Source: Pseudarthrobacter chlorophenolicus A6
GTDB lineage: Bacteria; Actinomycetota; Actinomycetes; Actinomycetales; Micrococcaceae
Direction: 5' to 3'
Assembly: GCF_000022025.1 (NCBI RefSeq)
Contig: NC_011879.1
Location: forward strand, 248,001-312,000
Length of the DNA stretch: 64,000 bases
This document shows, piece after piece, positions 798 through 63,862 of the stretch. The notes below the pieces were generated by a model. It was not told the DNA's origin. It searched no databases and worked only from the letters and a program-made list of their open reading frames with translations. A program made the translations under genes and the position numbers. How positions within the stretch are numbered: position 1 is the first letter of the stretch; each line of letters opens with the position of its first letter.

Positions 798-827
798 ATG
801 TGTGCGGACCCCTGCATTTGGGTCCCC
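798..827 (-). promoter_or_regulatory. CACACAT-class promoter
   Basis: Coding strand: GGGGAC, 17-nt spacer, CACACAT, then 7 nt to the ATG at 790. Predicted leaderless start. Confidence 0.75.
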
Positions 828-873
828 AAGCCGCCTAACTTCGGAGGGGGTTGACCGCCGCGTCGCGGCGACG

Positions 874-1329
874 CTACTTCAGGGTCTGACCGCCGCCAGG
901 CCATTCGACCCTGGCCAGCGGTGTCGCCAGGATCAGCTTCCAGCACCCGTCGCACGGCTTCTTCGTGGTGGAGAGCGTCGAGCCCTCCATGTCCGCCCAG
1001 CTGGCACGGATGATGGCATTGGCCTCGGCGTGGATGCTGATGCAGGCGCCCGGACCTGTGTCGTAGGAGCTTCCGTAATCTTTGCCGACACTGGCCCGCG
1101 GGCAGGCACCGCTGGTGAGGCAACCGGCCATTCCCGAAGGGGCTCCGTTGTAGCCGGTCGCGACGATACGCATGTCAGCGGTCATGATGACGGCCCCGAC
1201 CTGTGCGCGGGAGCAGTCGGCGCGGGCAGCGACTGCTGTCGCGATGCTCATCGCCCAGTCGCTCCAGGTCGGTCGCGGATCCGAGGCGGGTGCGCCATTG
1301 TCTGCCAGAGTGGCTGGTTGTTCAGTCAT
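874..1329 (-). CDS. dCMP/cytidine deaminase-family enzyme
   Basis: 151 aa. Zinc-dependent deaminase fold: His100-Ala-Glu102 (HAEANAII) and PCDGC with Cys126/Cys129 are the metal ligands and proton-shuttle glutamate of the CDA superfamily. The N-terminal block (RAQVGAVIM, ATGYNGAPSG) is typical of deoxycytidylate deaminases, which feed dUMP to thymidylate synthesis and are common on phages and plasmids. I did not find the allosteric-site residues with certainty, so ComE-type or guanine-type activity is possible. The ATG at 1329 is preceded by GTGAG at about 7 nt; a GTG at 1338 overlapping the upstream stop is an alternative. Last gene of the operon that begins at 2642. Confidence 0.85.
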   Translation of the reverse strand: MTEQPATLADNGAPASDPRPTWSDWAMSIATAVAARADCSRAQVGAVIMTADMRIVATGYNGAPSGMAGCLTSGACPRASVGKDYGSSYDTGPGACISIHAEANAIIRASWADMEGSTLSTTKKPCDGCWKLILATPLARVEWPGGGQTLK

Positions 1330-1338
1330 GTGCAGCAC

Positions 1339-1671
1339 TCACAGGTTCCAGGACTTGTCGGGGTCCGCCAGGTCATCGAAAAGTTCGAGTTGTCCGGTGT
1401 AGCCGGTCAGCTCCCGGAAGTGGGCGATGACCGAGTCGTGGCTGCGGTGGGTAAAAACCTCGGCGCCGTCGGCGTAGAGGATGTGCACTTGCCGGTCGTC
1501 GTCCAGGCCGATGACGTAGTCGGGTTCGTGCCGGCGGTCGATGATTTCGCGCAGGACCGACTTGATGCTGGTCGCGTCGAGGTGGGTCAGGTGGCTGAAG
1601 TCGCCGTTCTCCCAGCCTTGAAGGGGAACAGTGTATTCAAGGGTCTCGCGGATAGTGACGTGGTCAGTCAT
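1339..1671 (-). CDS. hypothetical protein, paralog of 2277-2642
   Basis: 110 aa, start MTDHVTIRETLEYTVPL. It shares with the 2277-2642 product the N-terminal T-x-RET-x-E-(Y/F)TV pattern, an I-x-RRHE-x-DY block, and F-x-(S/H)RSHD near the C terminus, so the two are duplicated copies of one family. The ATG overlaps the upstream stop by 8 nt, which argues for translational coupling. Function unknown; acidic, no signal peptide or membrane segment. Confidence 0.8.
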   Translation of the reverse strand: MTDHVTIRETLEYTVPLQGWENGDFSHLTHLDATSIKSVLREIIDRRHEPDYVIGLDDDRQVHILYADGAEVFTHRSHDSVIAHFRELTGYTGQLELFDDLADPDKSWNL

Positions 1672-1945
1672 CGATGTTCTCCGGGCCGGTTCCAGCTGCG
1701 GCGGGGGCCGGGGCCTGGTCGAGCTTGGCCTGCCGTGCATCGTAGGTCTTCTTGAGGTCCGCGGTTATCCACTGGTGGCTCATTGCCTGGGTGTGGGCAT
1801 CCTTGTGTCCGGCCGCGTATGCCTGGGCGAGGGCTTCTCGGATGACGAAGACGGTGTTGCCGGCGTCGGCCTGGGGGCTGCTGATCTCCCGCACCACGGC
1901 CTGCAGTTGCTGGTCGAGGTGGGCGGGCATCGGGGTGTAGCTCAT
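1664..1945 (-). CDS. hypothetical protein, 93 aa
   Basis: Start MSYTPMPAHLDQQLQAVVRE with GAGGAA a few bases upstream; the ATG overlaps the previous stop as ATGA. Mostly helical, ending in an Ala/Pro-rich tail. No family recognised. Third gene of the five-gene 2642 to 874 operon. Confidence 0.8.
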   Translation of the reverse strand: MSYTPMPAHLDQQLQAVVREISSPQADAGNTVFVIREALAQAYAAGHKDAHTQAMSHQWITADLKKTYDARQAKLDQAPAPAAAGTGPENIDD

Positions 1946-2280
1946 GGGTTCCTCGTTCTCACGGGTGGGCCGGTGCGGAGTTCGTCGGCGCGGTGCTGGA
2001 GCCATCCCACATCGGTGGTCATGGCGTGGAGCGTGTCGTCGTTGTCGATGCCGGCGTTGTAGGAGCGGACCCGGATGATGTCCACTGACGCCTGCAGGTC
2101 GGTGGCAGCGTCAGTAAGTGCCTGGGCGGCGATGAAGGGTGCGGCCGCGGCGATCGCACCGGCGAACAGGGCCCAGGTGCCGTGCTCGGAGAGCCAGTCG
2201 GCCTTGCTGACCCCTGGCGGTGGGGTGACTTCCCGCATCGCTTCTTTCGCGGCTTCGAGTGCGTCGGCAGGAAGGCTCAT
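1942..2280 (-). CDS. hypothetical protein with hydrophobic segment, 112 aa
   Basis: Start MSLPADALEAAKEAMREV, ATGA overlap with the upstream gene. Residues 34-54 (ALFAGAIAAAAPFIAAQAL) form one hydrophobic stretch that could be a membrane segment or a buried helix. No family recognised. Confidence 0.8.
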   Translation of the reverse strand: MSLPADALEAAKEAMREVTPPPGVSKADWLSEHGTWALFAGAIAAAAPFIAAQALTDAATDLQASVDIIRVRSYNAGIDNDDTLHAMTTDVGWLQHRADELRTGPPVRTRNP

Positions 2281-2642
2281 GACTGCTCCTGTTTTGCGGC
2301 TTTGCTCTCGGCCTGGATTCGCCAAAACTTGTCCTGGTCGTCGAGGTCCCCGAACCGGAACACTTGGGACACGTCATCACCGAGGGAACCGCAGTGGTCA
2401 ACGACGGCATCATGGCTGCGGGACTCGAAGATCCGCTCTCCGTCCTTCAGGAGGTAGAACAGTTCGGCTTCCAGGTCGCAGTCCCAGGAGTAGTCGACCT
2501 CGTGCCGGCGGCCGATCTCCTCACGGGAGACCACCTTTACGTCCTGACGCTCTTCGCCGTAGGAGTGCTCGGCCTCGTAGTCGTCGCGTGGCAGCCGGAC
2601 GGTGAATTCCACGGTCTCGCGGTAGGTGATGAAATCGGTCAT
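2277..2642 (-). CDS. hypothetical protein, paralog of 1339-1671
   Basis: 121 aa, start MTDFITYRETVEFTVRL. First gene of the operon 2277, 1942, 1664, 1339, 874, all linked by 4-8 nt overlaps. Its ATG is 7 nt after the CACACAT block. Shares the EEIGRRHEVDY and SRSHDAVV blocks with its paralog and is slightly longer because of a charged insertion near residue 25. Function unknown. Confidence 0.8.
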   Translation of the reverse strand: MTDFITYRETVEFTVRLPRDDYEAEHSYGEERQDVKVVSREEIGRRHEVDYSWDCDLEAELFYLLKDGERIFESRSHDAVVDHCGSLGDDVSQVFRFGDLDDQDKFWRIQAESKAAKQEQS

Positions 2643-2649
2643 GCGGGTC

Positions 2650-2679
2650 ATGTGTGCGGCGCGGCGCTCAGGTCTCCCC
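2650..2679 (-). promoter_or_regulatory. CACACAT-class promoter
   Basis: GGGGAG, 17 nt, CACACAT, 7 nt to ATG 2642. Drives the five-gene deaminase operon. Confidence 0.8.
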
Positions 2680-2740
2680 GGATCTCGGAGCCGTACCTCT
2701 CCGGGAGCACCACGGATACCTCCCCGGTACGATGCGGGAC

Positions 2741-3199
2741 GTGTCGCTGCTGATTAGCGTGGTTGGCATGACAACCATCAAGCACTCCGATCGAGGATTT
2801 TCCTCGGATCGCATGCGCCGCGTCGTCGTGGCCCTGATGCTTCTTGAAGCCCTGTCCCTTGCGGTGATCTCGGGACTTCACCTCTCGGGCGTCATCGCCG
2901 GCGGCACGAAGCCCTACAACCCTCAGGCTGCCGGGATCGCAGAAGCAGTTATTGGCGTGGTCCTCGTGGCAGGCGCCGTGATGGCCATGCGCAGTCCGGC
3001 GCGCGGGCGCACGGCAGCGATGGCGGCCACCGCGTTCGCCATCGTTGGCTTCCTCGTCGGACTTGGTTTCACTATCAGTGGCGGCCAGCCCACTGACGTG
3101 GCCTATCACGCTACGGTGCTGCCCCTTCTGGTCTTGACCCTGGCGCTGTCAGTCCGTTGGACCGGAGCCCGCGGTCGCTCCGGGCATGCCCACGCCTAG
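2741..3199 (+). CDS. four-helix membrane protein
   Basis: 152 aa from a GTG at 2741, or 143 aa from ATG 2768. I prefer the GTG because TACGAT (2728-2733) ends exactly 7 nt before it, the same leaderless spacing used elsewhere here; no clear Shine-Dalgarno precedes either start. Four hydrophobic segments: VVVALMLLEALSLAVISGL, AEAVIGVVLVAGAVMAM, AATAFAIVGFLVGLGF and ATVLPLLVLTLALSV. Plus-strand gene, divergent from the deaminase operon and convergent with 3196-3780, sharing the palindromic CTAG of the two stops. Family unknown. Confidence 0.65.
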   Translation: MSLLISVVGMTTIKHSDRGFSSDRMRRVVVALMLLEALSLAVISGLHLSGVIAGGTKPYNPQAAGIAEAVIGVVLVAGAVMAMRSPARGRTAAMAATAFAIVGFLVGLGFTISGGQPTDVAYHATVLPLLVLTLALSVRWTGARGRSGHAHA

Positions 3200-3780: not shown

Positions 3781-3787
3781 GCGGGCA

Positions 3788-3817
3788 ATGTGTGCGGACA
3801 GGTCGTTGCCGCTCATC
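3788..3817 (-). promoter_or_regulatory. CACACAT-class promoter
   Basis: Weaker -35 (GATGAG), 17 nt, CACACAT, 7 nt to ATG 3780. Overlaps the last codons of the upstream gene. Confidence 0.65.
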
Positions 3818-7713: not shown

Positions 7714-7743
7714 ATGTGTGCGGAGCAGACCCTGTGCCTCCCC
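7714..7743 (-). promoter_or_regulatory. CACACAT-class promoter with leader
   Basis: GGGGAG, 17 nt, CACACAT; about 42 nt to ATG 7671, which has its own Shine-Dalgarno. Confidence 0.7.
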
Positions 7744-11211: not shown

Positions 11212-11241
11212 ATGTGTGCGGAACCACAGAGACTACTCACC
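11212..11241 (-). promoter_or_regulatory. CACACAT-class promoter with leader
   Basis: GGTGAG, 17 nt, CACACAT; 39 nt to ATG 11172. Controls the disaccharide phosphorylase operon, tying metabolic cargo to the element-wide promoter class. Confidence 0.75.
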
Positions 11242-13088: not shown

Positions 13089-13118
13089 ATGTGTGGGGCA
13101 TGAGGGTGATCCCTCACC
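13089..13118 (-). promoter_or_regulatory. CACACAT-class promoter
   Basis: GGTGAG, 17 nt, CACACAT preceded by CCC instead of CCG, 7 nt to ATG 13081. Confidence 0.8.
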
Positions 13119-13723: not shown

Positions 13724-13753
13724 ATGTGTGCGGCGCATGACTTTAGCCTGAGC
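13724..13753 (-). promoter_or_regulatory. CACACAT-class promoter, weak -35
   Basis: CACACAT with 7 nt to ATG 13716; the -35 position reads GCTCAG, off consensus. Confidence 0.6.
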
Positions 13754-14791: not shown

Positions 14792-15097
14792 TCATGTGTG
14801 CGGCGCCACCGCTGTCGCTGGCCGTGCAGCCTCCCGCTTCGCGGCCCACAAAGTGCATGCTTCCTGCATGGTGATGGGCTGGGCGCCGAGACGGATTGCC
14901 AGCTCCCGCTTTGAGTCGGTGACGTCGAAGTGTTCCTTCCAGATGTGCCCTGGGTTCTGGATCCACGACGGCTTAAGGCCGAGCTTCGCTGCGAAGTCGA
15001 GCAGTTCCTCTGTACTGTCAGCGGTCAGGTGTGACCATCTGGCCTGGATACGGCCGACCCGTGCTGGCATTCGCATGCTGTCGACGTAGACGGTCAC
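14792..15097 (-). CDS. DUF4031 protein
   Basis: 101 aa from a GTG overlapping the upstream stop as GTGA. The pattern TVYVDSMRMPAR, WSHLTADSTEELLDFAAKLG, then HFDVTDSKRELAIRLGA matches DUF4031, a small family of unknown function common in actinobacteria and their phages. Full length for the family. Last gene of the four-gene operon from 15605. Confidence 0.85.
   Translation of the reverse strand: MTVYVDSMRMPARVGRIQARWSHLTADSTEELLDFAAKLGLKPSWIQNPGHIWKEHFDVTDSKRELAIRLGAQPITMQEACTLWAAKREAARPATAVAPHT
14794..14823 (-). promoter_or_regulatory. CACACAT-class promoter with leader
   Basis: CACACAT present, -35 position GGCCAG off consensus; 94 nt upstream of the lipoprotein ATG and overlapping the end of the DUF4031 gene. 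Confidence 0.5.
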
Positions 15098-15612: not shown

Positions 15613-15642
15613 ATGTGTGCGGAGCGGGTCCCTGTCGTCACC
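15613..15642 (-). promoter_or_regulatory. CACACAT-class promoter
   Basis: GGTGAC, 17 nt, CACACAT, 7 nt to ATG 15605; overlaps the end of the upstream gene. Confidence 0.8.
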
Positions 15643-16381: not shown

Positions 16382-16411
16382 ATGTGTGCGGACTTGTCAC
16401 CCGCGGTCATC
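16382..16411 (-). promoter_or_regulatory. CACACAT-class promoter
   Basis: GATGAC at the -35 position, 17 nt, CACACAT, 7 nt to ATG 16374. Confidence 0.7.
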
Positions 16412-18823: not shown

Positions 18824-18853
18824 ATGTGTGCGGCATCACAGAAAGATCTTCAC
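18824..18853 (-). promoter_or_regulatory. CACACAT-class promoter, weak -35
   Basis: CACACAT present; -35 position GTGAAG off consensus. 44 nt to the ATG at 18780. Confidence 0.5.
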
Positions 18854-20244: not shown

Positions 20245-20274
20245 ATGTGTAAGGCAAGCCGGCCATCGCTCCCC
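20245..20274 (-). promoter_or_regulatory. CACACAT-class promoter variant with leader
   Basis: GGGGAG, 17 nt, TACACAT (first base T); 44 nt to ATG 20200. Confidence 0.65.
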
Positions 20275-22792: not shown

Positions 22793-22822
22793 ATGTGTGC
22801 GGACACGACGGCTGGCGTCACC
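22793..22822 (-). promoter_or_regulatory. CACACAT-class promoter
   Basis: GGTGAC, 17 nt, CACACAT, 7 nt to ATG 22785. Confidence 0.8.
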
Positions 22823-23700: not shown

Positions 23701-23730
23701 ATGTGTGCGGATCCACCGCGGAACGTCTCC
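23701..23730 (-). promoter_or_regulatory. CACACAT-class promoter
   Basis: GGAGAC, 17 nt, CACACAT, 7 nt to ATG 23693. Confidence 0.8.
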
Positions 23731-24450: not shown

Positions 24451-24480
24451 ATGTGTGCGGACTCCGCCTTCACAATCACC
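24451..24480 (-). promoter_or_regulatory. CACACAT-class promoter
   Basis: GGTGAT, 17 nt, CACACAT, 7 nt to ATG 24443. Confidence 0.8.
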
Positions 24481-25215: not shown

Positions 25216-25245
25216 ATGTGTGCGGACGGCGGGGCAAGACTCACC
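25216..25245 (-). promoter_or_regulatory. CACACAT-class promoter
   Basis: GGTGAG, 17 nt, CACACAT, 7 nt to ATG 25208. A near-perfect copy. Confidence 0.85.
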
Positions 25246-25663: not shown

Positions 25664-25693
25664 ATGTGTGCGGCCGGGACTGAACCCGTCATC
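25664..25693 (-). promoter_or_regulatory. CACACAT-class promoter
   Basis: GATGAC, 17 nt, CACACAT; 41 nt to the GTG at 25622, which has its own Shine-Dalgarno. Confidence 0.6.
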
Positions 25694-26661: not shown

Positions 26662-26691
26662 ATGTGTACGGAGAGCTCCCGGACTCTCCCC
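26662..26691 (-). promoter_or_regulatory. CACACAT-class promoter, TACACAT variant
   Basis: GGGGAG, 17 nt, TACACAT, 7 nt to ATG 26654. Confidence 0.75.
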
Positions 26692-28748: not shown

Positions 28749-28778
28749 ATGTGTGCGGCGGCGGACGGAGGTCTCTCC
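28749..28778 (-). promoter_or_regulatory. CACACAT-class promoter
   Basis: GGAGAG, 17 nt, CACACAT, 7 nt to ATG 28741. Confidence 0.8.
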
Positions 28779-31265: not shown

Positions 31266-31295
31266 ATGTGTGCGGAGCAGCGTGATCGGCTCCCC
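31266..31295 (-). promoter_or_regulatory. CACACAT-class promoter
   Basis: GGGGAG, 17 nt, CACACAT, 7 nt to ATG 31258. Drives the HA-repeat operon. Confidence 0.8.
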
Positions 31296-32017: not shown

Positions 32018-32047
32018 ATGTGTGCGGAGGCGCTGCCGGTGCTCCCC
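32018..32047 (-). promoter_or_regulatory. CACACAT-class promoter with leader
   Basis: GGGGAG, 17 nt, CACACAT; 38 nt to ATG 31979. Confidence 0.7.
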
Positions 32048-35444: not shown

Positions 35445-35474
35445 ATGTGTGCGGAGATTCCGGCTCCGCTCACC
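35445..35474 (-). promoter_or_regulatory. CACACAT-class promoter
   Basis: GGTGAG, 17 nt, CACACAT, 7 nt to ATG 35437. Confidence 0.85.
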
Positions 35475-35697: not shown

Positions 35698-35727
35698 ATG
35701 TGTAGGGATGGCGGCCGAACGCTCATC
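35698..35727 (-). promoter_or_regulatory. CACACAT-class promoter, TACACAT variant
   Basis: GATGAG, 17 nt, TACACAT, 7 nt to ATG 35690. Confidence 0.7.
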
Positions 35728-36079: not shown

Positions 36080-36109
36080 ATGTGTGCGGCTGCGAGCCGA
36101 TACGTCTTC
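36080..36109 (-). promoter_or_regulatory. CACACAT-class promoter
   Basis: GAAGAC at the -35 position, 17 nt, CACACAT, 7 nt to ATG 36072. Confidence 0.65.
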
Positions 36110-38767: not shown

Positions 38768-38797
38768 ATGTGTGCGGAGGCTCGTGCATGGGTCACC
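38768..38797 (-). promoter_or_regulatory. CACACAT-class promoter, 8-nt spacing
   Basis: GGTGAC, 17 nt, CACACAT, 8 nt to ATG 38759. Confidence 0.75.
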
Positions 38798-40602: not shown

Positions 40603-40632
40603 ATGTGTGCGGAAGGGCCGCCCTGGCTCACC
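40603..40632 (-). promoter_or_regulatory. CACACAT-class promoter overlapping a hairpin
   Basis: GGTGAG, 17 nt, CACACAT, 7 nt to ATG 40595. The -35 and spacer lie inside the hairpin at 40613-40645. Confidence 0.8.
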
Positions 40633-41910: not shown

Positions 41911-41940
41911 ATGTGTGCGGAGGAAATACTCGGTCTCCCC
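41911..41940 (-). promoter_or_regulatory. CACACAT-class promoter
   Basis: GGGGAG, 17 nt, CACACAT, 7 nt to ATG 41903. Divergent from the 41944-41971 promoter. Confidence 0.85.
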
Positions 41941-44465: not shown

Positions 44466-44495
44466 ATGTGTGCGGAGGAGGAGAGAGCCCTTCCC
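44466..44495 (-). promoter_or_regulatory. CACACAT-class promoter, weak -35
   Basis: GGGAAG, 17 nt, CACACAT, 7 nt to ATG 44458. Confidence 0.65.
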
Positions 44496-45206: not shown

Positions 45207-45236
45207 ATGTGTGCGGAGGAATCGGCCAACCTCTCC
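45207..45236 (-). promoter_or_regulatory. CACACAT-class promoter
   Basis: GGAGAG, 17 nt, CACACAT, 7 nt to ATG 45199. Confidence 0.8.
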
Positions 45237-45885: not shown

Positions 45886-45915
45886 ATGTGTGCGGAAGAC
45901 GCGGGCTAGCTCCCC
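45886..45915 (-). promoter_or_regulatory. CACACAT-class promoter
   Basis: GGGGAG, 17 nt, CACACAT; 36 nt to ATG 45849 (or 3 nt to the alternative GTG). Confidence 0.7.
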
Positions 45916-47462: not shown

Positions 47463-47492
47463 ATGTGTGGGGCGGCGGCCGTAACGCTCACC
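47463..47492 (-). promoter_or_regulatory. CACACAT-class promoter of the rearranged RNA ligase
   Basis: GGTGAG, 17 nt, CACACAT, then GAGGGGC with no start codon after it. In the unrearranged orientation the 7-nt gap ends at the ligase ATG. Confidence 0.85.
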
Positions 47493-49075: not shown

Positions 49076-49105
49076 ATGTGTGCGGCGGATGCGGGCTTCC
49101 TCACC
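49076..49105 (-). promoter_or_regulatory. CACACAT-class promoter
   Basis: GGTGAG, 17 nt, CACACAT, 7 nt to ATG 49068. Confidence 0.85.
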
Positions 49106-49730: not shown

Positions 49731-49760
49731 ATGTGTGCGGAACCTGGCCGGCCCCTCCCC
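49731..49760 (-). promoter_or_regulatory. CACACAT-class promoter, 8-nt spacing
   Basis: GGGGAG, 17 nt, CACACAT, 8 nt to ATG 49722. Confidence 0.75.
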
Positions 49761-53224: not shown

Positions 53225-53254
53225 ATGTGTGCGGAGGAAACGGAGTCGCTGCCC
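53225..53254 (-). promoter_or_regulatory. CACACAT-class promoter
   Basis: GGGCAG, 17 nt, CACACAT, 7 nt to ATG 53217. Confidence 0.65.
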
Positions 53255-53871: not shown

Positions 53872-53901
53872 ATGTGTGCGGAGGAAGGCCCGGGACTACC
53901 C
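53872..53901 (-). promoter_or_regulatory. CACACAT-class promoter overlapping a hairpin
   Basis: GGGTAG, 17 nt, CACACAT, 7 nt to ATG 53864. The -35 lies inside the 53890-53909 hairpin loop. Confidence 0.65.
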
Positions 53902-54442: not shown

Positions 54443-54472
54443 ATGTGTACGGATCCGTAAGAATCCATGCTC
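54443..54472 (-). promoter_or_regulatory. CACACAT-class promoter, TACACAT variant
   Basis: TACACAT with 7 nt to ATG 54435; the -35 position (GAGCAT) is off consensus. Confidence 0.55.
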
Positions 54473-55212: not shown

Positions 55213-57318
55213 CTAGACCTCGCCGTCCTCGACCATCTGAGCGAACTCGTCCGGGGTAACGATGCGGATGCCGAGCTCCTGTGCTTTGAGGAATTTGCTG
55301 GAACCGGGTTCTCCGCAAACCAGCAGGTCGGTGGTCTTGGAGACGGAGCCGGAGGCCTTGCCGCCCTTGGCCTCGATCAGCTCCTGCACCCCGGACCTGG
55401 AGAGGGACCCGAGCGGGCTGCCCTTCACCGAGCCGGTGACGACCACGTTCATGGGCTTGCCGTCCGGCTTGGTCAGCTTCGGGGCCTTGGCGCCCGCGGC
55501 CGGGGCTGCCTTCGGGGCACCCATGTTGACGCCAGCTTCCCGGAGCTTTGCGATGACAGGTGCGTTCTTCTTCAGCTGCTCGTGGATGACCTCGGCCTTC
55601 TTCTGGCCGATGCCTTCGACGTTCGCCAGCTGCGAGACCGTGGCGGCCTGGAGGGCCTCCATCGTGCCGAACTCGGCGGCCAGGCGGCGGCCGAAGGTGC
55701 GTCCCGTGAACCGCATCGACAAGGCGGTGATGACCCGGTTCAGCGGCTGAGACTTGGCCTTCTCGATCTCGGCCATGATCTTGGCGGCGTTCTTCTGCCC
55801 CAGGGTGCGGGTGCCGCCGGTGGAGGTTTCACCGAGTTCTACCTCGGCGAGTTGATCTTCGCCGAGGTAGAACAGGTCGGAGACGTCCTTGACCAGGTCC
55901 TTCTCGATCAGCGCGTCACCGATGGAACCACCCAGGCCCTCGATGTCCAGGCCGGCGTCGCGGGATGCAGCATACGAGATGCGGCCTGACACGGAGCATT
56001 CCGGGGTGTGGCAGCGCCAGAGCTCGGTGCTCTTGTCGAACGGCTCGGAGCACTGCGGGCAGACCGACGGCGGCTGCCACGGCTGGGAGCTTTCATCTCG
56101 GAGATCGGCACGGGGCAGGTGGACCTGGGGGATGATGTCGTTCGCCTTGTAGGCAGATACAGTGTCGCCGATGCGCATGTCCGCGGCCTGGAGATGGCCG
56201 ACGTTGTGCAGGGAGGCGTACTCGACGACGGAACCGTCCACCTCGACCGGGGTCAGCCGGGCACGGATGGACAGGCGGCCGGTCTTGCCGATGTTGTATT
56301 CGATGTCCTCGATGACCGTGGGCTCTTCCACGGCCGGGTACTTGTACGCCACGGCCCACTTGGGAGCCCGGGAGCCTTCACCCAGTTCTGCACGCTCCGC
56401 TGCCGTGTTCACCTTGAGGACCGCTCCATCCATGAGGAAGTTCAACCCCTTGCGTTCGGCACCGAGGGCGGCGATGGCGGCCATCGGGTCTTCGGCGTCC
56501 AGGACCGACTGCGGCAGCAGGGACCGGGCGGTCGTGAAGCCCATGCCTTCCAGCTGCTGCATCGAGTCGAGGTGGTCTGCTTTCTCATCGATCGTTGTGG
56601 AGTACGCGGCGAAGGAGAACAGGCCGGCATAGGAGCCGTCCTGCTTGTTCAGCATCCCGGCGACGCCGTTGCGGGCGTTGGCGAAGGGCGCCTTGCCGGC
56701 GGCCTGGCGGATGGCGTTGGCCTTGGCCTTGTTCTCGTCATTCAGGTACAGCTCGCCGCGGACCTCGTAGTCGCCGTCCCCTGCCATCTCGGGAAGACCA
56801 TCAACACCGCGGACACGGTCGGTGACGTCCTCGCCGGTGTAACCGTCACCGCGGCGGGCGGCTCGGACCATCTTGCCGTTCTCGTAGCGGACACTAATCG
56901 CCAGACCGTCGATCTTGGGTTCGATGACAGCCTTCGGGTGCTTGGCCGCGAACTCGATGACAGCGTCCTCGCCCGGCTTCTCCAGCGACTTCATCGGGGT
57001 GGCGTGCTCGACGTCTCCGCCGCCGGCGCCGCCGTGGCCGATCGTGTCGTGCAGGTCGTGCTCCGGCTCGATGCCGTTCGCTGCCTCGTGGGAGGCGATC
57101 TTGGCGAGCAGCCTGTCGAACTCGGCGTCGTTCATTTCTTCGACGTCGGTCGTCTCGTAGGCCTTGGCAGCGGAGAGCGCGGTCGTGACGGCTGCCTGGT
57201 ACTCCTCCTCGCTGCCGAATGTGGCGAGGCCGATGCCCGGTTCTGCGTGGTTCGTGGCGGCGAACTGGCCGCCGACGGGGACGCCGGATGGTTGCCGGTT
57301 CTGGGGTGCTGGGCTCAT
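55213..57318 (-). CDS. ligA: NAD-dependent DNA ligase LigA with N-terminal tag
   Basis: 701 aa, about 30 longer than typical. Domains: domain Ia remnant (MNDAEFDRLLAKI), ATPMKSLEK, adenylation motif EPKIDGLAISVRYENG with Lys135, RRGDGYTGEDVT, OB fold, Cys4 zinc finger (CPQCSEPF ... CHTPEC), helix-hairpin-helix (VEGIGQKKAEVIHEQL), and a C-terminal BRCT domain (NVVVTGSVKGSPL, DLLVCGEPGSSKFLKA). Seals nicks in replication and repair. The first 30 residues include SGVPVGGQFAATNHAEP, also found at the N terminus of the unrelated 62416-62907 protein. GAAGGAAAA precedes the ATG. Accessory copy: the chromosome must have its own. Confidence 0.95.
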   Translation of the reverse strand: MSPAPQNRQPSGVPVGGQFAATNHAEPGIGLATFGSEEEYQAAVTTALSAAKAYETTDVEEMNDAEFDRLLAKIASHEAANGIEPEHDLHDTIGHGGAGGGDVEHATPMKSLEKPGEDAVIEFAAKHPKAVIEPKIDGLAISVRYENGKMVRAARRGDGYTGEDVTDRVRGVDGLPEMAGDGDYEVRGELYLNDENKAKANAIRQAAGKAPFANARNGVAGMLNKQDGSYAGLFSFAAYSTTIDEKADHLDSMQQLEGMGFTTARSLLPQSVLDAEDPMAAIAALGAERKGLNFLMDGAVLKVNTAAERAELGEGSRAPKWAVAYKYPAVEEPTVIEDIEYNIGKTGRLSIRARLTPVEVDGSVVEYASLHNVGHLQAADMRIGDTVSAYKANDIIPQVHLPRADLRDESSQPWQPPSVCPQCSEPFDKSTELWRCHTPECSVSGRISYAASRDAGLDIEGLGGSIGDALIEKDLVKDVSDLFYLGEDQLAEVELGETSTGGTRTLGQKNAAKIMAEIEKAKSQPLNRVITALSMRFTGRTFGRRLAAEFGTMEALQAATVSQLANVEGIGQKKAEVIHEQLKKNAPVIAKLREAGVNMGAPKAAPAAGAKAPKLTKPDGKPMNVVVTGSVKGSPLGSLSRSGVQELIEAKGGKASGSVSKTTDLLVCGEPGSSKFLKAQELGIRIVTPDEFAQMVEDGEV

Positions 57319-57357: not shown

Positions 57358-57387
57358 ATGTGTGCGGCAGCGGGCCGGGTAGTGCCC
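57358..57387 (-). promoter_or_regulatory. CACACAT-class promoter with leader (ligA)
   Basis: GGGCAC, 17 nt, CACACAT; 39 nt to ATG 57318. Confidence 0.65.
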
Positions 57388-58654: not shown

Positions 58655-58684
58655 ATGTGTGCGGAGCCTCTGACAGTTCTTCTC
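58655..58684 (-). promoter_or_regulatory. CACACAT-class promoter
   Basis: GAGAAG at the -35 position, 17 nt, CACACAT, 7 nt to ATG 58647. Confidence 0.6.
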
Positions 58685-58801
58685 GCTACAGGTCTTTCAG
58701 TGTCATGGCGATCAGGAGCCGGGCATCGGACCGCGGTGAGCTTCAACCGGGCCACCGCACACATATGGTGGGAAAAGCACCCTCAACCTCAGGAGTAGCC
58801 A

Positions 58802-59740
58802 TTGTCAGCCCCGTCCGGCAGTAAGGCGATTATCGCCGCGCTGTCAGCCAACCTGTCCATCGCCGTGATGAAATTCATCGCGTTCGCCCTCACCGGAGCC
58901 TCTTCGATGCTGGCCGAGGCTATTCACTCGGTCGCTGACTCCGGCAACCAGGTGCTGCTGCTCGTCGGCGGGAAACAGTCCCGGAAGGAGGCGACCAAGC
59001 TGCACCCCTTCGGTTACGGCCGCGAACGCTACATCTACGCGTTCATCGTCTCGATCGTCCTCTTCACCGTCGGTGGCCTGTTCGCACTCTACGAGGCATA
59101 CGAGAAGTTCCTGGACCCGCACGGCATCGAAGGCGCCTGGTGGTGGGTGCCCCTCGCAGTTCTGATTGGCGCCATCATTGCCGAGGGAACCTCGTTCCGC
59201 ACAGCGATCCGCGAATCCAACCTCACCCGCGGCAAGGCATCCTGGGCAAAGTTCATCCGGACTGCAAAGTCCCCGGAGCTGCCGGTCATTCTCCTCGAAG
59301 ACTTCGCAGCGTTGATCGGTCTGGCCTTCGCCCTCCTCGGTGTCTCCATGACGCTCATCACCGGCAACGGCCTCTGGGACGCCGCCGGCACCGCGCTGAT
59401 CGGCATCCTGCTGGTCTTCGTCGCCGCCGTCCTGGCGATCGAAACCAAGTCCCTGCTGTTGGGTGAATCCGCCACCGCCGCCGATGTCGAGAAGATCGAG
59501 CAGGCACTCGTGGGAGACGGGATCAGCCAGGTCATCCACTTGCGCACCGTACACCTCGGCCCGGAAGAGCTCCTCGTGGCCGCCAAGATCGCCGTCGAGG
59601 AAACCGCCACAGGTGTCAGCATTGCCGAGGCGATCAACGCCGCTGAAGTCAGGGTGCGTTCCGCCGTGCCGATCGCGCGGGTGATTTACCTGGAGCCGGA
59701 CATCTTCTCCGGCGCCGCCCCTGCAGAGACCCCTGCCTGA
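58802..59740 (+). CDS. cation diffusion facilitator (CDF) transporter
   Basis: 312 aa, TTG start with AGGAG 7 nt ahead. Six membrane segments, the second carrying the metal site EAIHSVADSGNQ (H-x3-D); HPFGYGRERYIYAF is the family loop; a second site lies in LLEDFAALIGL (here E-D rather than H-x3-D); the cytoplasmic C-terminal domain (DVEKIEQALVGDGISQVIHL) follows. Exports zinc, manganese, iron or cobalt by proton antiport; the D-rich second site suggests a Mn/Fe branch, by inference only. Plus strand, own terminator, so an independent cargo unit. Confidence 0.9.
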   Translation: MSAPSGSKAIIAALSANLSIAVMKFIAFALTGASSMLAEAIHSVADSGNQVLLLVGGKQSRKEATKLHPFGYGRERYIYAFIVSIVLFTVGGLFALYEAYEKFLDPHGIEGAWWWVPLAVLIGAIIAEGTSFRTAIRESNLTRGKASWAKFIRTAKSPELPVILLEDFAALIGLAFALLGVSMTLITGNGLWDAAGTALIGILLVFVAAVLAIETKSLLLGESATAADVEKIEQALVGDGISQVIHLRTVHLGPEELLVAAKIAVEETATGVSIAEAINAAEVRVRSAVPIARVIYLEPDIFSGAAPAETPA

Positions 59741-59748
59741 CCCATGAC

Positions 59749-60360: not shown

Positions 60361-60466
60361 GATCCTTCTTTCGGGGTTCGGGTGTTCCGGTCGCCGTCCG
60401 TTCCGGCGGTGAGCAGATTCGAGGTGGAGAGGTTGCCGTGGATGGCATCGACTCCGCTGCAATCAC
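60350..60466 (-). CDS. possible 38-residue coupled ORF
   Basis: GTG overlapping the upstream stop as GTGA; reads MIAAESMPSTATSPPRICSP and ends KKDHEG. It fills the only gap in this operon, but composition is Pro/Ser/Thr-rich, so it may be chance. Confidence 0.3.
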   Translation of the reverse strand: MIAAESMPSTATSPPRICSPPERTATGTPEPRKKDHEG

Positions 60467-60747
60467 GCGGAACGCTCCTTGACGGGGACGATGACGATCT
60501 CTTCGCCGAACCGCATGAGGTCTTTCCAGTAGATGTCCCGGTCCTCAGCCATGGCGCGGTAGGAGTGGGCGTAGTCGCCGAAGAGGTCGTTCAGGAGGGC
60601 ATCGTCTTCCTCGATGACCGACATGATCCGGGCCGCGAAGTCGCCGTCTGCCAGATTGATTCCAGCCAGTTTCTCCAACGGAACGTGGATGCTGCGGACG
60701 ATGTCTTTGTGGTACCGGAGGACGAAACTGAATTTGAGGGCGAACAT
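60463..60747 (-). CDS. hypothetical protein, 94 aa
   Basis: Start MFALKFSFVLRYHKDIVRSI with AAGGAGCC ahead, so leadered despite the CACACAT block 48 nt upstream. Helical after a beta start. First gene of the 60747 operon. Confidence 0.75.
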   Translation of the reverse strand: MFALKFSFVLRYHKDIVRSIHVPLEKLAGINLADGDFAARIMSVIEEDDALLNDLFGDYAHSYRAMAEDRDIYWKDLMRFGEEIVIVPVKERSA

Positions 60748-60795
60748 GGCGAGGCTCCTTGGGGTATCGAAGTGCTGCGCGGCTGCGCCCCTCCC

Positions 60796-60825
60796 ATGTG
60801 TGCGGACGCTGGAGCGCGGCTCTCC
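60796..60825 (-). promoter_or_regulatory. CACACAT-class promoter with leader
   Basis: GGAGAG, 17 nt, CACACAT; 48 nt to ATG 60747. Confidence 0.75.
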
Positions 60826-60827
60826 GG

Positions 60828-61535
60828 TCAGCTCCAGTACGTGTAGAGGATCGGCCGAAGGGACGTCCAGGTGCCTTGGTCGGTGAACAGGTTGCCCAGC
60901 AGGGCCAGTTCGCGGATTTCGGCGGGGACCAGGCGGGTCAGCCGCTCGGCGGCGATCGCGGCGTCGGCGAAAAGTGGTTCCTCAGGCCGGGGCCGGCCGG
61001 CAAAGGAGATGCGCCGGGCGGCGATGTCGTGCTGCTCGACGTCGCTGTTGAGGGCGAGGGCCCGGCGGTAGCCACGGACGTAGTTGTAGTTGAGCTCCAG
61101 CCCGGTTGCCTTGTCCATCCAACGACCGTCGTAGGGGTCGATGCCGGGGACGTCGTGGAGGGCAGGGCTGGTGTCGGCTTCGCCGCCAAGGTGCGCTTCC
61201 ACGTAGTCGAAGATGTTGTCATCCTGGATCCAGGTGGACGCATAGGACGGCGGGACGAGGGCCATGACGCTGGGCAGCCCGTAGTCGAAGGAATGCACAA
61301 CGCAGGAGCCGAGGCGGTAGGAGAGTTGGTTGCCGATCCCGGCCCGCACCATGTCCACGTCCTCCAACTCGGGGTCTTCGAACGGGCCGGCCGCTTCCAA
61401 ATGGTGCATGAAGTCGCCGAACGTCGGCTTGACCCCCACCAGGTCGAGCAAGGGCGAATCCCAGTTGATGCGTTGGTCAGCTGGTACGACGTCGGTCAGT
61501 GCGTAGCCCAGGACTTTTCGGATGCGAAGTGACAT
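60828..61535 (-). CDS. hypothetical protein, 235 aa
   Basis: Start MSLRIRKVLGYALTDVVPAD, 7 nt after a CACACAT block. GNQLSYRLGSCVVHSFDYGL and NYNYVRGYRRALALNSDVEQ are notable; Asp/Pro-rich loops. Monocistronic. Similar large cytosolic proteins occur in actinobacterial phages, but I cannot name a family. Confidence 0.75.
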   Translation of the reverse strand: MSLRIRKVLGYALTDVVPADQRINWDSPLLDLVGVKPTFGDFMHHLEAAGPFEDPELEDVDMVRAGIGNQLSYRLGSCVVHSFDYGLPSVMALVPPSYASTWIQDDNIFDYVEAHLGGEADTSPALHDVPGIDPYDGRWMDKATGLELNYNYVRGYRRALALNSDVEQHDIAARRISFAGRPRPEEPLFADAAIAAERLTRLVPAEIRELALLGNLFTDQGTWTSLRPILYTYWS

Positions 61536-61542
61536 GCCATGT

Positions 61543-61572
61543 ATGTGTGCGGAGGGGTTGCGGGCGCTCTAC
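61543..61572 (-). promoter_or_regulatory. CACACAT-class promoter
   Basis: GTAGAG at the -35 position, 17 nt, CACACAT, 7 nt to ATG 61535. Confidence 0.65.
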
Positions 61573-61622
61573 GGGGACCGTCAGCTACTCTCGCAGAAAC
61601 ACCAGCATTGGAAGGGCAGCCG

Positions 61623-61769
61623 ATGAATCATTTCCTGAACCGACTCGCCGCGGAACGTCAAAAGACAGACCACGAGAAGATTTGGTGGGACTGGAGTAAA
61701 GCACATGTAGCGGCCGGCCACGAAGTGTGGGATCCGAGCGGCTCTCCGTGTGTGCGGAGAGCCCGTTAG
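61623..61769 (+). CDS. small plus-strand protein, 48 aa
   Basis: Start MNHFLNRLAAERQKTDHEKI with GGAAGGG ahead and a TACTCT box at 61586-61591. The 3' end runs through the hairpin at 61740-61763. Convergent with 61766-62059 (4-nt overlap) and divergent from 60828-61535. Helical, Trp-rich (IWWDWSKAHV). Function unknown. Confidence 0.55.
   Translation: MNHFLNRLAAERQKTDHEKIWWDWSKAHVAAGHEVWDPSGSPCVRRAR
61740..61763. terminator. hairpin at convergent gene ends
   Basis: Perfect 9-bp stem GGCTCTCCG / CGGAGAGCC with loop TGTGTG. The loop and right arm resemble a CACACAT block, but no gene starts at the right distance. Confidence 0.6.
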
Positions 61770-62059
61770 CCCTGCCCGGAGTCGACCTTCTCGGCCGCGA
61801 TGCGCTTCGCGATGCTCTTGGCGACCCGGGTGCATCCCGGGCAAGTGATGCCGAACAGGGTACGGATCGGGTTGCTGGAGGTCGACCCGACGTCCCGGCC
61901 GCAGAAACCCACGTGGACGAAGATGCCAGGGGTCAGGTGCTGGACGAAACGCCCTTCGGCAAACCAGGGATCGCCGCCCGGCTCGTTTTCCTTGCCCCAG
62001 CCTTCGACGAGGAGCTTCTGCCACTCGCGGCGAGAGACGTTCAGCTTCCTGCTACGCAC
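61766..62059 (-). CDS. hypothetical protein, 97 aa
   Basis: GTG start 1 nt after the upstream stop (MRSRKLNVSRREWQKLLVEG). FVHVGFCGRDVGSTSSNP then FGITCPGCTRVAKSIAKRIA, a possible zinc or redox CxxC. Function unknown. Confidence 0.7.
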   Translation of the reverse strand: MRSRKLNVSRREWQKLLVEGWGKENEPGGDPWFAEGRFVQHLTPGIFVHVGFCGRDVGSTSSNPIRTLFGITCPGCTRVAKSIAKRIAAEKVDSGQG

Positions 62060-62060
62060 G

Positions 62061-62375
62061 TCAGGCCTCCACGGCGATGAGCTCGCGAACGTCGCAGTTG
62101 AGCTCGGCGCCCCAGAGTTTCGGGATGAACCGCCGGATGTCGTCGGCCTCAGGACCTCCGTCCATGCACTCCCCGCTGTTGCGTCGCCGCAGGTAGTCAG
62201 CGATGAGTTCCCGGTCTGCATCCTCCCCGTCGACGTCTGGGTCATAGCGGAAATCGCTGAGATGTTGGCGGGACACCAGGTACTCAAAGGCGCGCAGCAC
62301 CTGCCGGTCGGTGTCGAAGGGCAGCGCTACTTCGACCTGGCCGACTGAGCGGCGGTTGATGTTGAGGATCTTCAT
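62061..62375 (-). CDS. hypothetical protein, 104 aa
   Basis: Start MKILNINRRSVGQVEVALPF, 7 nt after a variant block. Acidic middle (YDPDVDGEDADRELIADYLR). First of two genes. Function unknown. Confidence 0.75.
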   Translation of the reverse strand: MKILNINRRSVGQVEVALPFDTDRQVLRAFEYLVSRQHLSDFRYDPDVDGEDADRELIADYLRRRNSGECMDGGPEADDIRRFIPKLWGAELNCDVRELIAVEA

Positions 62376-62382
62376 GTGCCCC

Positions 62383-62412
62383 ATGTGTACGGCGGGGCTG
62401 GTACGACTCCCC
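62383..62412 (-). promoter_or_regulatory. CACACAT-class promoter, TACACAT variant
   Basis: GGGGAG, 17 nt, TACACAT, 7 nt to ATG 62375. Confidence 0.75.
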
Positions 62413-62415
62413 GTG

Positions 62416-62907
62416 TCAGGCCGACGCGAGCTGCTCGATCTCGTGTTTGAGTGCCTTGCGGGTGACGTCCAGTTCCGTGGCGTCGAAAAGACCGCCGTTG
62501 CCGACCGTACCCAGCGACTTGCGGTATTCGGCTTCGACCATCTCCAGGGCCGCCGGCAGGTGCTTCTCGTATCGGTCCATCCCCCGGTCGCGGAATTCGT
62601 ACATGTCCGGGTAGAGCCTTGCCTTTTCGACCTCCCTCAGTCCGGCCTGGTCTACGGCGCGCCAGGCCGTGATGCACAGCTGGGTGCGATCGAAGCTGCC
62701 GCGGCCCATCAAACCGTCCGAAGCCTCTTCCTTCCACCGGTTGGAGGCCATTGTGTGGAAAGCGATCTGCTGGACGGCGGCCTCGAAGGTGTCATCTGGC
62801 AGCCCTATCAGGTGGACGTGGTCGGGTTCGGCATGAGCGGTTGCGGCGAATTGTCCGCCGGAGGGGACACCGGGCTGAATGCGGGGCTGGGACGAGGTCA
62901 TACTCAT
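62416..62907 (-). CDS. hypothetical protein with LigA-like N-terminal tag
   Basis: 163 aa. Residues 9-28 (RIQPGVPSGGQFAATAHAEP) nearly repeat the N-terminal tag of LigA in this window, while the rest (helical, DRTQLCITAWRAVDQAGLRE, EVEKARLYPDMYEFRDRG) is unrelated. The tag is Gly/Ala/Pro-rich and probably exposed. A degenerate GCACACA lies just before the start. Function unknown; the tag may direct localisation or a shared partner. Confidence 0.8.
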   Translation of the reverse strand: MSMTSSQPRIQPGVPSGGQFAATAHAEPDHVHLIGLPDDTFEAAVQQIAFHTMASNRWKEEASDGLMGRGSFDRTQLCITAWRAVDQAGLREVEKARLYPDMYEFRDRGMDRYEKHLPAALEMVEAEYRKSLGTVGNGGLFDATELDVTRKALKHEIEQLASA

Positions 62908-62922
62908 CTGTGTGCGGGCCTT

Positions 62923-63129
62923 TCAGGAGTTGATGAGCTGGTCACGGAGGGCAACGGCCCTTGCGGTGGGGCGGAACGGCGCCTCAGCGGCCCGGGAAGC
63001 CCTGCCGAGGCGGCCGGGGATGTGGCCCATGCACTTCTCGCAGCACGCCCGCCTCATGCGCTCACGGTGCTGGCGTCGGAGGGCCTTCTTGCGGGCGCCG
63101 ACGGCAGTGGAGCGGAGATTTCGCTTCAC
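62923..63129 (-). CDS. basic Cys protein, 68 aa
   Basis: GTG start overlapping the upstream stop as GTGA. Highly basic (ARKKALRRQHRERMRRACCE) with CCEKC; ends RALVALRDQLINS-like helix. Nucleic-acid binding is plausible from charge alone. Confidence 0.65.
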   Translation of the reverse strand: MKRNLRSTAVGARKKALRRQHRERMRRACCEKCMGHIPGRLGRASRAAEAPFRPTARAVALRDQLINS

Positions 63130-63482
63130 CGAGCCTCCTTCTCGAAACTGAACAGCTGCAGCGACGGCGCCTGGGAAGGGGCAGCTTCGGCGGGACGGGT
63201 GCAGGTGGATGCGAGTTCCTCGGGTGTCCACTGGGCCAGACGAATCCCGGACTCGATCAGCTCCTCGCGGAGGCTCTCATGCCAGCCGGATGGCATGTCG
63301 TGGGTGACCAGTTCGGCCTCGCCGGGTTCGAGGTACGTGTATTCCTGGGGGATCTCCCAGGATTCGCTTTCGGTGACAGCGTGGATCGGGATGCGGATCG
63401 TGACGTAGCCAAGCGGCTGGTCGGTGTTGCTGCTCAAGGGGGCTTCCTCCTGCTCGGGCCGGCGGGCGGCCGGCTGCTTCAC
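63126..63482 (-). CDS. hypothetical protein, 118 aa
   Basis: GTG start overlapping the upstream stop as GTGA; a TTG 45 nt later with AGGAGGAAG 7 nt ahead is a good alternative (MSSNTDQPLG). Beta-rich first half (LGYVTIRIPIHAVTESESWE), acidic. Function unknown. Confidence 0.7.
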   Translation of the reverse strand: MKQPAARRPEQEEAPLSSNTDQPLGYVTIRIPIHAVTESESWEIPQEYTYLEPGEAELVTHDMPSGWHESLREELIESGIRLAQWTPEELASTCTRPAEAAPSQAPSLQLFSFEKEAR

Positions 63483-63862
63483 TGCATGTGTGCGGCAGGA
63501 GCCAGCGCAGTGCCCGCCTCCAACTGCCGGACGTAGTGGTCCAGGAACACGGGAGGGAACGCTGCAGCGTCGGCAGTGACTGACCATTGCAGCCAGAAGG
63601 CGGCGGCCATTCGCGCCCAGCCCTCGGTCATTGGTTCGGGCCGGATCAGTTCACGCGGGTACCCCTGGCGGACGGAACGATCGCCCAGATACCGGCTGAT
63701 CTTGATCCGGTCGATCCGGGCCGTCCCCGGGGGTGTCGCCCAGAGGTGCTTGCCGTCGGTTTCGAAGGCGTGCCCGTTGAGTGTGAAGTGCACCGGTTCG
63801 GGCAGCGCCGGCCGGGTGCGGTGGTAGCCGCGGCGCCGCTCCTGCGCAATCGGACTACCCAT
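63479..63862 (-). CDS. hypothetical protein, 127 aa
   Basis: Start MGSPIAQERRRGYHRTRPAL, overlapping the upstream small gene by 8 nt. PVHFTLNGHAFETDGKHLWA and ARMAAAFWLQWSVTADAAAF; its last codons contain the CACACAT block at 63486. Function unknown. Confidence 0.75.
   Translation of the reverse strand: MGSPIAQERRRGYHRTRPALPEPVHFTLNGHAFETDGKHLWATPPGTARIDRIKISRYLGDRSVRQGYPRELIRPEPMTEGWARMAAAFWLQWSVTADAAAFPPVFLDHYVRQLEAGTALAPAAHMQ
63486..63515 (-). promoter_or_regulatory. CACACAT-class block inside a coding end
   Basis: GGGCAC, 17 nt, CACACAT, 3 nt to GTG 63482. Spacing off; may serve the TTG start 45 nt further down. Confidence 0.5.

What the first reader, a model, noticed from the sequence alone, without database searches (positions are those of the whole stretch)
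798..63515. Element-wide promoter class: GGNGAS, 17 nt, CACACAT, 7 nt, ATG
Seen directly: at least 43 copies, all on the minus strand and all in front of minus-strand genes or operons. The CACACAT (or TACACAT) block is near invariant, usually preceded by CCG. The 17-nt spacer to a GGNGA(G/C/T) hexamer is exact in 26 copies, and five more have GANGA. In about 30 copies the gap to the start codon is exactly 7 nt. Two blocks at bacterial promoter spacing imply sigma-type recognition, but CACACAT lacks the T-12 and A-11 of TANNNT and GGTGAG is not TTGACA. I know of no sigma consensus that fits. This points to a dedicated sigma factor, activator or altered polymerase encoded by or for this element, coordinating most of its genes.
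Basis: partly seen in the sequence, partly recalled or inferred. Interest (0 to 1): 0.95.

Follow-up and report, generated by a model that had tools for sequence, protein, structure and literature searches.

The report
A plasmid family's private promoter class
Large plasmids of Arthrobacter-like bacteria carry 75 to 84 strict copies each of a promoter-like sequence that occurs only once in the rest of this genome, likely read by a hidden plasmid-encoded sigma factor that would switch the plasmid's genes on as a set.

Summary
The window is part of a 426,858-base contig whose relatives are circular 375-440 kb plasmids of Micrococcaceae. The two-block sequence occurs 81 times on this contig and once on the other 4.55 Mb, and 75-84 times on each of four related plasmids, with no hit for the reversed pattern. 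Over five plasmids, 710 of 719 CCGYACACAT sites are intergenic. About half have a start codon exactly 7 nt downstream. The other half keep a pyrimidine-purine step there (232 of 341), which suggests a transcription start at that base, and so leaderless mRNAs in the first half. Orthologous genes keep the motif. A second class, GCCGCACACA(A/G), lies beside it. The likeliest reader is a cryptic 295-aa protein (SigX), annotated as 'HTH domain' or hypothetical, whose predicted fold best matches sigma factors. Distant SigX relatives sit on Curtobacterium megaplasmids with a shifted motif, CCGCGCATAG-7 nt-ATG, and no RpoD-like sigma. No transcript has been mapped, and SigX scores below curated sigma cut-offs. 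A plasmid RpoD-like sigma, here fused to a helicase, is the main rival; a few motif copies occur in genomes that have such a fusion but no SigX.

The parts
798..827 (-). class I site, ATG at +7
2650..2679 (-). class I site, ATG at +7
3788..3817 (-). class I site (GATGAG), ATG at +7
7714..7743 (-). class I site, leadered (gene 42 nt on)
11212..11241 (-). class I site, leadered (gene 39 nt on)
13089..13118 (-). class I site (CCC variant), ATG at +7
13724..13753 (-). class I site, weak upstream block, ATG at +7
14794..14823 (-). class I site, weak upstream block; next predicted gene 250 nt on
15613..15642 (-). class I site, ATG at +7
16382..16411 (-). class I site (GATGAC), ATG at +7
18824..18853 (-). 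class I site, weak upstream block; predicted start overlaps
20245..20274 (-). class I site (CCT variant), leadered (44 nt)
22793..22822 (-). class I site, ATG at +7
23701..23730 (-). class I site, ATG at +7
24451..24480 (-). class I site, ATG at +7
25216..25245 (-). class I site, ATG at +7 (the gene caller chose a later start)
25664..25693 (-). class I site (GATGAC), leadered (41 nt)
26662..26691 (-). class I site, ATG at +7
28749..28778 (-). class I site, ATG at +7
31266..31295 (-). class I site, ATG at +7
32018..32047 (-). class I site, leadered (38 nt)
35445..35474 (-). class I site, ATG at +7
35698..35727 (-). class I site (GATGAG, CCC variant), ATG at +7
36080..36109 (-). class I site (GAAGAC), ATG at +7
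38768..38797 (-). class I site, start at +8
40603..40632 (-). class I site, ATG at +7
41911..41940 (-). class I site, ATG at +7
44466..44495 (-). class I site, weak upstream block, ATG at +7
45207..45236 (-). class I site, ATG at +7
45886..45915 (-). class I site, leadered (36 nt)
47463..47492 (-). class I site (CCC variant); next predicted gene start 382 nt on
49076..49105 (-). class I site, ATG at +7
49731..49760 (-). class I site, start at +8
53225..53254 (-). class I site (GGGCAG), ATG at +7
53872..53901 (-). class I site (GGGTAG), ATG at +7
54443..54472 (-). class I site, weak upstream block, ATG at +7
57358..57387 (-). class I site (GGGCAC), leadered (39 nt), before the predicted 701-aa gene 55213-57318 (NAD-dependent DNA ligase in relatives)
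58655..58684 (-). class I site (GAGAAG), ATG at +7
58735..58764 (+). class I site on the plus strand, leadered (37 nt), before plus-strand gene 58802-59740
60796..60825 (-). class I site, leadered (48 nt)
61543..61572 (-). class I site (GTAGAG), ATG at +7
62383..62412 (-). class I site, ATG at +7
63486..63515 (-). class I site (GGGCAC); predicted start 3 nt on
62908..62917 (-). possible class II site CCGCACACAG with ATG 6 nt on

Best explanation
The repeated sequence is likely a promoter class private to one family of large Micrococcaceae plasmids, predicted to be read by SigX, a divergent plasmid-encoded sigma factor acting with the host's RNA polymerase core. Anatomy (shown by the sequence): a -35-like block (c/t)GG(G/T)GA(G/C), then 13-14 nt, then (G/T)CCG(C/T)ACACAT; 7 nt after its T stands either a start codon or, mostly, a Y-R step. 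Inferred: transcription starts at that purine, so about half of the mRNAs begin at their start codon (leaderless) and the rest have a short leader with its own ribosome-binding site. The operon that holds parA and sigX (from contig position 327 kb) has no such site in front. SigX would then be made from another, probably host-type promoter and in turn fire the ~160 sites, including the one before the plasmid's own RpoD-like helicase-sigma fusion. A sister class, GCCGCACACA(A/G), would be read either by SigX with different helpers or by another of the plasmid's sigma-like proteins.
For: Plasmid-restricted: 81 of 82 genome hits on the 0.43-Mb contig; 75-84 hits on each of four related plasmids, 0 reversed-pattern hits; of 295 Micrococcaceae genomes only two reach 80 or more hits, most have 0-4, and the reversed pattern reaches at most 4. 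Sharp geometry: the commonest GGNGA gap and the +7 start codon stand far above other distances. 710 of 719 sites intergenic by my gene calls. Start-site signature at the same base in leadered sites: 232 of 341, against 28-58 at offsets 7-12 and 14-15. Orthologues keep their class: C1-W01 both class I 82, expected 31.7; class swaps 7, expected 16. SigX: in all five plasmids, 61-90% identical to that of C1; of 295 genomes, 90% or better only in the two motif-rich ones. AlphaFold2 model (mean pLDDT 77): the 36 Foldseek matches with E <= 0.001 are, by entry title and chain, sigma factors. Profile comparison with seven pooled sigmas 82% over 216 collinear columns; the best of 80 control families reaches 72.5% over 28 columns only. 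Curtobacterium megaplasmids with SigX relatives lack the exact motif but carry CCGCGCATAG-7-ATG, 117 of 140 copies intergenic (resampled expectation 1-2 copies per plasmid), with no RpoD-like sigma.
Against: No transcript data. SigX scores below every curated sigma-70 cut-off, its profile finds no sigma among solved structures, and comparison with the RpoD-like alignment alone gives about 2% and with two group-3 sigmas alone 60%. The model is helical with pTM 0.42, and whole-chain superpositions have rmsd near 20 A; only single domains fit closely. Some genomes have motif copies but no SigX: G038, G035 and G105 (12, 11 and 7 strict hits), and G123 and G252 (4 each). They also lack the neighbouring core gene, so they may hold remnants, but this is not a clean positive; G123 has a helicase-sigma fusion. 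SigX and the RpoD-like sigma occur together on all five plasmids, so co-occurrence there cannot tell them apart. The two Curtobacterium plasmids also carry one and two other sigma-70 proteins over the Pfam cut-off (40-45 bits), which could read their motif. Genomes with 33-36% SigX relatives (G133, G102, G082, G148) showed no matching motif in about 35 kb examined.
Confidence: 0.55

Rival explanations
1. The plasmid's RpoD-like sigma reads the motif. On this element it is one 990-aa protein: an XPB/ResIII-type helicase, sigma regions 2, 3 and 4, and a helicase-associated (HA) domain. The helicase might help to open a promoter with little A+T.
For: Present in all five plasmids and in G115; sigma regions clear Pfam cut-offs; the gene has a motif copy 8 nt before its own start. 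G123 has such a fusion, no SigX, and four class I sites with full anatomy on another contig; G009 has one, no SigX, and one class I-like copy on the same 721-kb contig.
Against: The residues that in known primary sigmas contact -10 and -35 DNA (recalled; helices WWIRQA and RERIRQIE) are the same as in the host SigA, so an altered specificity is not explained. The fusions of G009 and G123, 52-55% identical, have no CCGYACACAT within the 20 kb fetched around each. Curtobacterium plasmids show the same architecture with no RpoD-like sigma. The helicase and HA domains are missing in two relatives that have the motif.
Confidence: 0.25
2. A plasmid-encoded DNA-binding activator reads one or both blocks and recruits host SigA-polymerase; no special sigma is involved.
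For: Two-block motifs can be activator sites. The upstream block is looser than the downstream one. A WhiB-family gene lies beside sigX in two Curtobacterium plasmids.
Against: The downstream block takes the place of the -10 element itself, is nearly invariant and keeps a fixed distance to the start signature; the upstream block keeps one main distance.
Confidence: 0.13
3. The motif is a translation or mRNA-end signal rather than a promoter.
For: Half of the sites sit exactly 7 nt before a start codon.
Against: The other half have no start codon there and yet keep the same upstream block and, mostly, the Y-R step.
Confidence: 0.04

Closest known systems
SigN (ZpdN) of Bacillus subtilis plasmid pBS32 (PMC6751061; passages read)
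   Same: A plasmid-encoded, sequence-divergent sigma factor that transcribes a large set of that plasmid's own genes.
   Different: The two SigN promoters shown in the passage are A+T-rich and of unlike sequence; the host is a Firmicute; the regulon was mapped experimentally. No relationship between SigN and SigX was tested.
FliA/WhiG group sigma factors (-35 TAAA, -10 GCCGATAA; PMC8325347, passages read)
   Same: A CCG just upstream of the -10 core, as in (G/T)CCGCACACAT and TCCGCGCATAG; SigX gives weak matches to FliA and FliA_WhiG models in their region 3.
   Different: The remaining -10 letters and the whole -35 block differ; SigX is far below those models' cut-offs.
Leaderless transcripts of actinobacteria (TSS mapping in Mycobacterium tuberculosis, PMC3898074; passages read)
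   Same: Start of transcription at or near the start codon, downstream of a conserved -10 element.
   Different: There the -10 is TANNNT, found across the chromosome; no conserved -35 consensus is reported in the passage read.

Membership tests
sigma-70 family (claimed for SigX, as a prediction) | sequence score over the curated cut-off of a sigma-70 model | tested here: not met
   Best sigma matches in SigX: Sigma70_r3 22.5 bits (cut-off 25.3), Sigma70_r4 13.3 bits (24.1), TIGR02937 14.9 bits (42.9).
sigma-70 family (claimed for SigX, as a prediction) | sigma2-sigma3-sigma4 fold in that order | tested here: inconclusive
sigma-70 family (claimed for SigX, as a prediction) | binds core RNA polymerase and directs initiation | not testable with these tools
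   needs purified protein
FliA/WhiG promoters | -35 TAAA and -10 GCCGATAA | tested here: not met
   Logo over 719 sites: (C/T)GGNGAG and (G/T)CCGYACACAT; only CCG is shared.
SigA (RpoD) promoters | -35 TTGACA, -10 TATAAT | tested here: not met
   Logo (consensus recalled).
plasmid-encoded sigma regulon (works like SigN/pBS32) | a sigma-like gene on the same replicon as a large set of like promoter-like sites | tested here: met
leaderless transcripts | 5' end at the start codon | not testable with these tools
   Inferred from fixed spacing and the Y-R step.

The most novel reading that the evidence does not exclude
These megaplasmids run a private transcription programme with several sigma-like proteins of their own. 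A cryptic sigma family (SigX), unrecognised by current models, reads a CCG-plus-seven-letter element whose letters have diverged together with SigX between Arthrobacter (CACACAT) and Curtobacterium (CGCATAG) plasmids. A second promoter class drives a separate regulon of proteins that share an N-terminal tag and include a further sigma-like protein, which might be shipped to recipient cells.
Probability: 0.35. Interest if true: 0.9.

Novelty: new variant of a known kind. Interest (0 to 1): 0.8.

Why it matters
If right, a family of large plasmids keeps its genes under its own sigma factor and promoter code, apart from the host's, and current sigma models miss the factor. The promoter is compact and highly conserved, with 719 natural examples in five plasmids, and the class offers about 380 predicted leaderless starts in one system. 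The parallel shift of SigX and motif between Arthrobacter and Curtobacterium plasmids would make sigma-promoter co-evolution directly testable.

Tried and rejected
RNA polymerase on the element: DxDGD (motif recalled, not from a call) occurs in a number of predicted proteins of the five plasmids, none in a polymerase-like context by eye, and no polymerase is named in the annotation of one relative, of which about 3 kb was not seen; a very divergent enzyme is not excluded. Phage origin: no DNA match among phage records for the 24 kb of window searched; no SigX match in phages or in the viral contigs at that sensitivity; the strict motif is single-copy in nine viral stretches. Strict motif over the genome contigs: 97 stretches, 80 rows listed; more than one hit per listed stretch only in Arthrobacter terrae, A. 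mobilis and Arthrobacter sp. H14. Host SigA as reader: rejected on motif distribution. RpoD-like plasmid sigma: kept as a rival. SigX relatives in another genus (G133, G102, G082, G148): no word before ATG stood out in about 35 kb, partly overlapping. Literature: searches for Arthrobacter with megaplasmid, sigma factor and leaderless, plasmid-encoded sigma factor, Arthrobacter plasmid CACACAT (two listed papers hold that string, not opened), GGQFA, helicase/sigma/megaplasmid terms and Curtobacterium megaplasmid showed no title on this motif among the rows listed; the library holds open-licence papers only. In the polyvalent-protein paper PMC5512222 the terms 'sigma' and 'GGQ' do not occur.

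Cautions on method. Genes were called by a script of mine. In one search it gave a bonus to starts 5-9 nt after YACACAT, so gene-distance tallies there lean towards +7; the start offsets, and the caller used, do not use that bonus. Class II was found in upstream regions that lacked class I, then collected by pattern. SigX was first noticed by eye and tested afterwards. Chromosomes of the related plasmids' hosts were not searched, and CCGYACACAT alone was not counted on this genome's chromosome. Labels such as C1, W01-W06, SigX and SigY are mine.
Full report
What the window is. The window is G000:C1:248001-312000, part of a 426,858-base contig in a three-contig genome of 4,980,870 bases. Its relatives in the plasmid collection are NZ_CP061722 (417,721 bases), NZ_CP053545 (440,465) and NZ_CP099467 (374,851) by DNA, and NZ_CP104273 (400,603) by protein. 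All four are circular plasmid records of Micrococcaceae. The annotated relative NZ_CP061722 carries its own DnaE, LigA, ribonucleotide reductase, thymidylate synthase, ParA, FtsK-like and a type IV secretion-like gene. I call the contig C1 and the relatives W01 (NZ_CP061722), W02 (NZ_CP053545), W03 (NZ_CP104273) and W04 (NZ_CP099467).

The observation. Shuffles give 0.21 for CCGYACACAT (39 seen) and 0.06 for the two-block pattern (27 seen). The plus-strand copy precedes a plus-strand gene; one minus-strand copy is inside a gene and looks accidental.

Beyond the window. The two-block pattern hits C1 81 times and the rest of the genome once. W01, W02, W03 and W04 have 75, 77, 82 and 84 hits, with none for the reversed pattern. 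Of 295 Micrococcaceae genomes sampled, G000 has 82 and G115 has 99; next come G038 with 12, G035 with 11, G105 with 7, and G029 and G231 with 6 each; the reversed pattern reaches at most 4. Over the five plasmids there are 160, 142, 139, 143 and 135 CCGYACACAT sites (C1, W01-W04), 719 in all. Of these, 710 are intergenic although only 15-22% of the sequence is intergenic by my gene calls, and 622 have a same-strand gene start within 150 nt downstream, against 121 with a gene start on the other side.

Anatomy. The GGNGA gap is sharp: in C1, 81 sites at one gap length and at most 6 at any other tabulated; a second gap, two bases shorter, reaches 13 in W03 and 19 in W04. Strict GGNGA is present at the main place in 377 of 719 sites, but the first G is kept in 692 and the A in 634. 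A start codon stands exactly 7 nt after the T in 378 of 719. The other 341 have none there, yet keep a Y-R step at that position in 232 of 341, against 28-58 at offsets 7-12 and 14-15; offset 16 has 135. I infer that transcription starts at this purine in both groups, which makes the first group leaderless. About a quarter of genes with a primary start in M. tuberculosis, another actinobacterium, are leaderless (PMC3898074, passages read).

Conservation. For orthologous genes of C1 and W01 (321 pairs), both have a class I site in 82 pairs, expected 31.7; spacer identity is 0.37, against 0.80 for five upstream-block positions. For W03 and W04 (359 pairs) it is 93, expected 29.2. All ten plasmid pairs show the same excess.

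A second class. Regions lacking class I led to CCGYACACA(A/G/C), mostly GCCGCACACA(G/A), with a start codon 6-7 nt on: 32, 41, 24, 53 and 46 pattern matches in C1 and W01-W04, 176 of 196 intergenic. Its upstream block is weak and different. Orthologues keep this class too (C1-W01: 16, expected 1.8), and class swaps are rarer than expected (7, expected 16). Class II genes are rich in a shared N-terminal sequence of the type RQPxGIPxGGQFAxxxHxEP: GG(Q/R/K/H)(F/Y) within 60 residues occurs in 16 of 24, 14 of 38, 12 of 17, 25 of 45 and 19 of 39 class II genes of C1 and W01-W04, against 10 of 142, 5 of 122, 10 of 116, 2 of 124 and 3 of 116 class I genes.

Candidate readers. Sigma-70 region 2 by Pfam gives a single hit on C1, inside a 990-aa protein made of a helicase, sigma regions 2, 3 and 4 and an HA domain; a class I copy lies 8 nt before its start. 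W02 has the same fusion, W01 sigma plus HA, W03 and W04 sigma alone. Its presumed DNA-contact helices equal those of host SigA (which residues make contact is recalled). Among 141 proteins with reciprocal best matches in all five plasmids, a 295-aa protein at C1:330755-331642 looked sigma-like. I call it SigX. Sequence models hit it weakly but collinearly: sigma70-ECF over residues 54-278, FliA over 131-231. Profile comparison with seven pooled sigma sequences gives 82% over 216 columns; with two group-3 sigmas alone 60%, with the RpoD-like ones alone 2%; the best of 80 control families gives 72.5% over 28 columns. The AlphaFold2 model has mean pLDDT 77 and pTM 0.42, and the 36 Foldseek matches with E <= 0.001 are, by title and chain, sigma factors. 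A domain fit reaches 2.2 A over 80 residues (sigma28) in the VIA comparison. SigX at 90% or better occurs in only G000 and G115 of 295 genomes, the two motif-rich ones; six more have 25-36% relatives and 0-2 motif hits. The sigX operon has no class I site in front; one copy lies further down, inside a later gene.

A natural comparison. Three Curtobacterium megaplasmids carry SigX relatives at 31-34%, two places each. In the two examined there is no two-block hit. A scan for words at a fixed distance before ATG, which recovers ACACAT in C1, instead finds GCATAG at 7 nt (50 cases in 400 kb of W05 = NZ_CP126255, 24 in 400 kb of W06 = NZ_CP126274), as (T)CCGCGCATAG: 140 copies, 117 intergenic, against resampled means of 0.95 and 1.8 per plasmid. 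A smaller CCGCACACA set is present as well (32 intergenic). No RpoD-like sigma lies on these two plasmids; they do carry one and two other sigma-70 region 2 proteins of 40-45 bits, which could also be readers. C1 and these plasmids share other genes: 73 C1 proteins match in the 800 kb inspected. A parA-like or AAA ATPase lies a few genes before sigX in both.

Judgement. That this is a real, plasmid-specific promoter class I hold at about 0.9. That SigX is a sigma factor, about 0.85. That SigX reads class I, about 0.55: SigX and the RpoD-like sigma are present together on all five plasmids, and mainly the Curtobacterium comparison separates them. When I checked this report against the calls I lowered this from 0.6 and raised the RpoD-like rival from 0.2 to 0.25, because G123 (four class I sites on contig C7, a helicase-sigma fusion on C38) and G009 (one class I-like copy and the fusion on C15) have the fusion and no SigX. 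G038, G105, G035 and G252 have motif copies and no SigX either. These, G123 included, lack the neighbouring core gene (G009 was not in that search), so they may hold remnants or incomplete elements; I count them against SigX only mildly.

Noticed in passing
contig C1 377249-380221 (outside the window); L043:2249-5218 +: A 990-aa fusion of an XPB/ResIII-type helicase, sigma regions 2-4 and an HA domain; same fusion in NZ_CP053545 and G115, and 52-55% identical fusions in G009 and G123, with no CCGYACACAT within the 20 kb fetched around each.
   Followed up: partly
27 predicted proteins of contig C1, e.g. within C1:200180-228197 -, and many in the relatives: A shared N-terminal sequence RQPxGIPxGGQFAxxxHxEP on otherwise different proteins, concentrated behind class II promoters; perhaps a delivery or packaging signal.
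   Followed up: partly
contig C1 357317-358354 (outside the window): A third sigma-like protein (345 aa) that carries the N-terminal tag and a class II site; weak sigma70-ECF match (E 0.001), AlphaFold2 pLDDT 80, Foldseek top 18 all sigma chains by title but none with E below 0.05.
   Followed up: partly
NZ_CP061722 292.6-321.9 kb: A flagellar gene island with its own sigma-70 gene is annotated on this relative of the element.
   Followed up: no
NZ_CP061722 and contig C1 347642-348550: Several helicase-associated (HA) domain proteins are annotated on the relative, and C1 has the orthologue of one of them; their role is unknown.
   Followed up: no
contig C1 about 32650 +: A class I-like CCGCACACAT directly follows a sequence that looks by eye like a tRNA T-arm; the window itself has no tRNA.
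   Followed up: no
L279:10264-12867 and L280:4189-6801: In two Curtobacterium plasmids a WhiB-family gene and two hypothetical genes lie between the ATPase gene and sigX.
   Followed up: no
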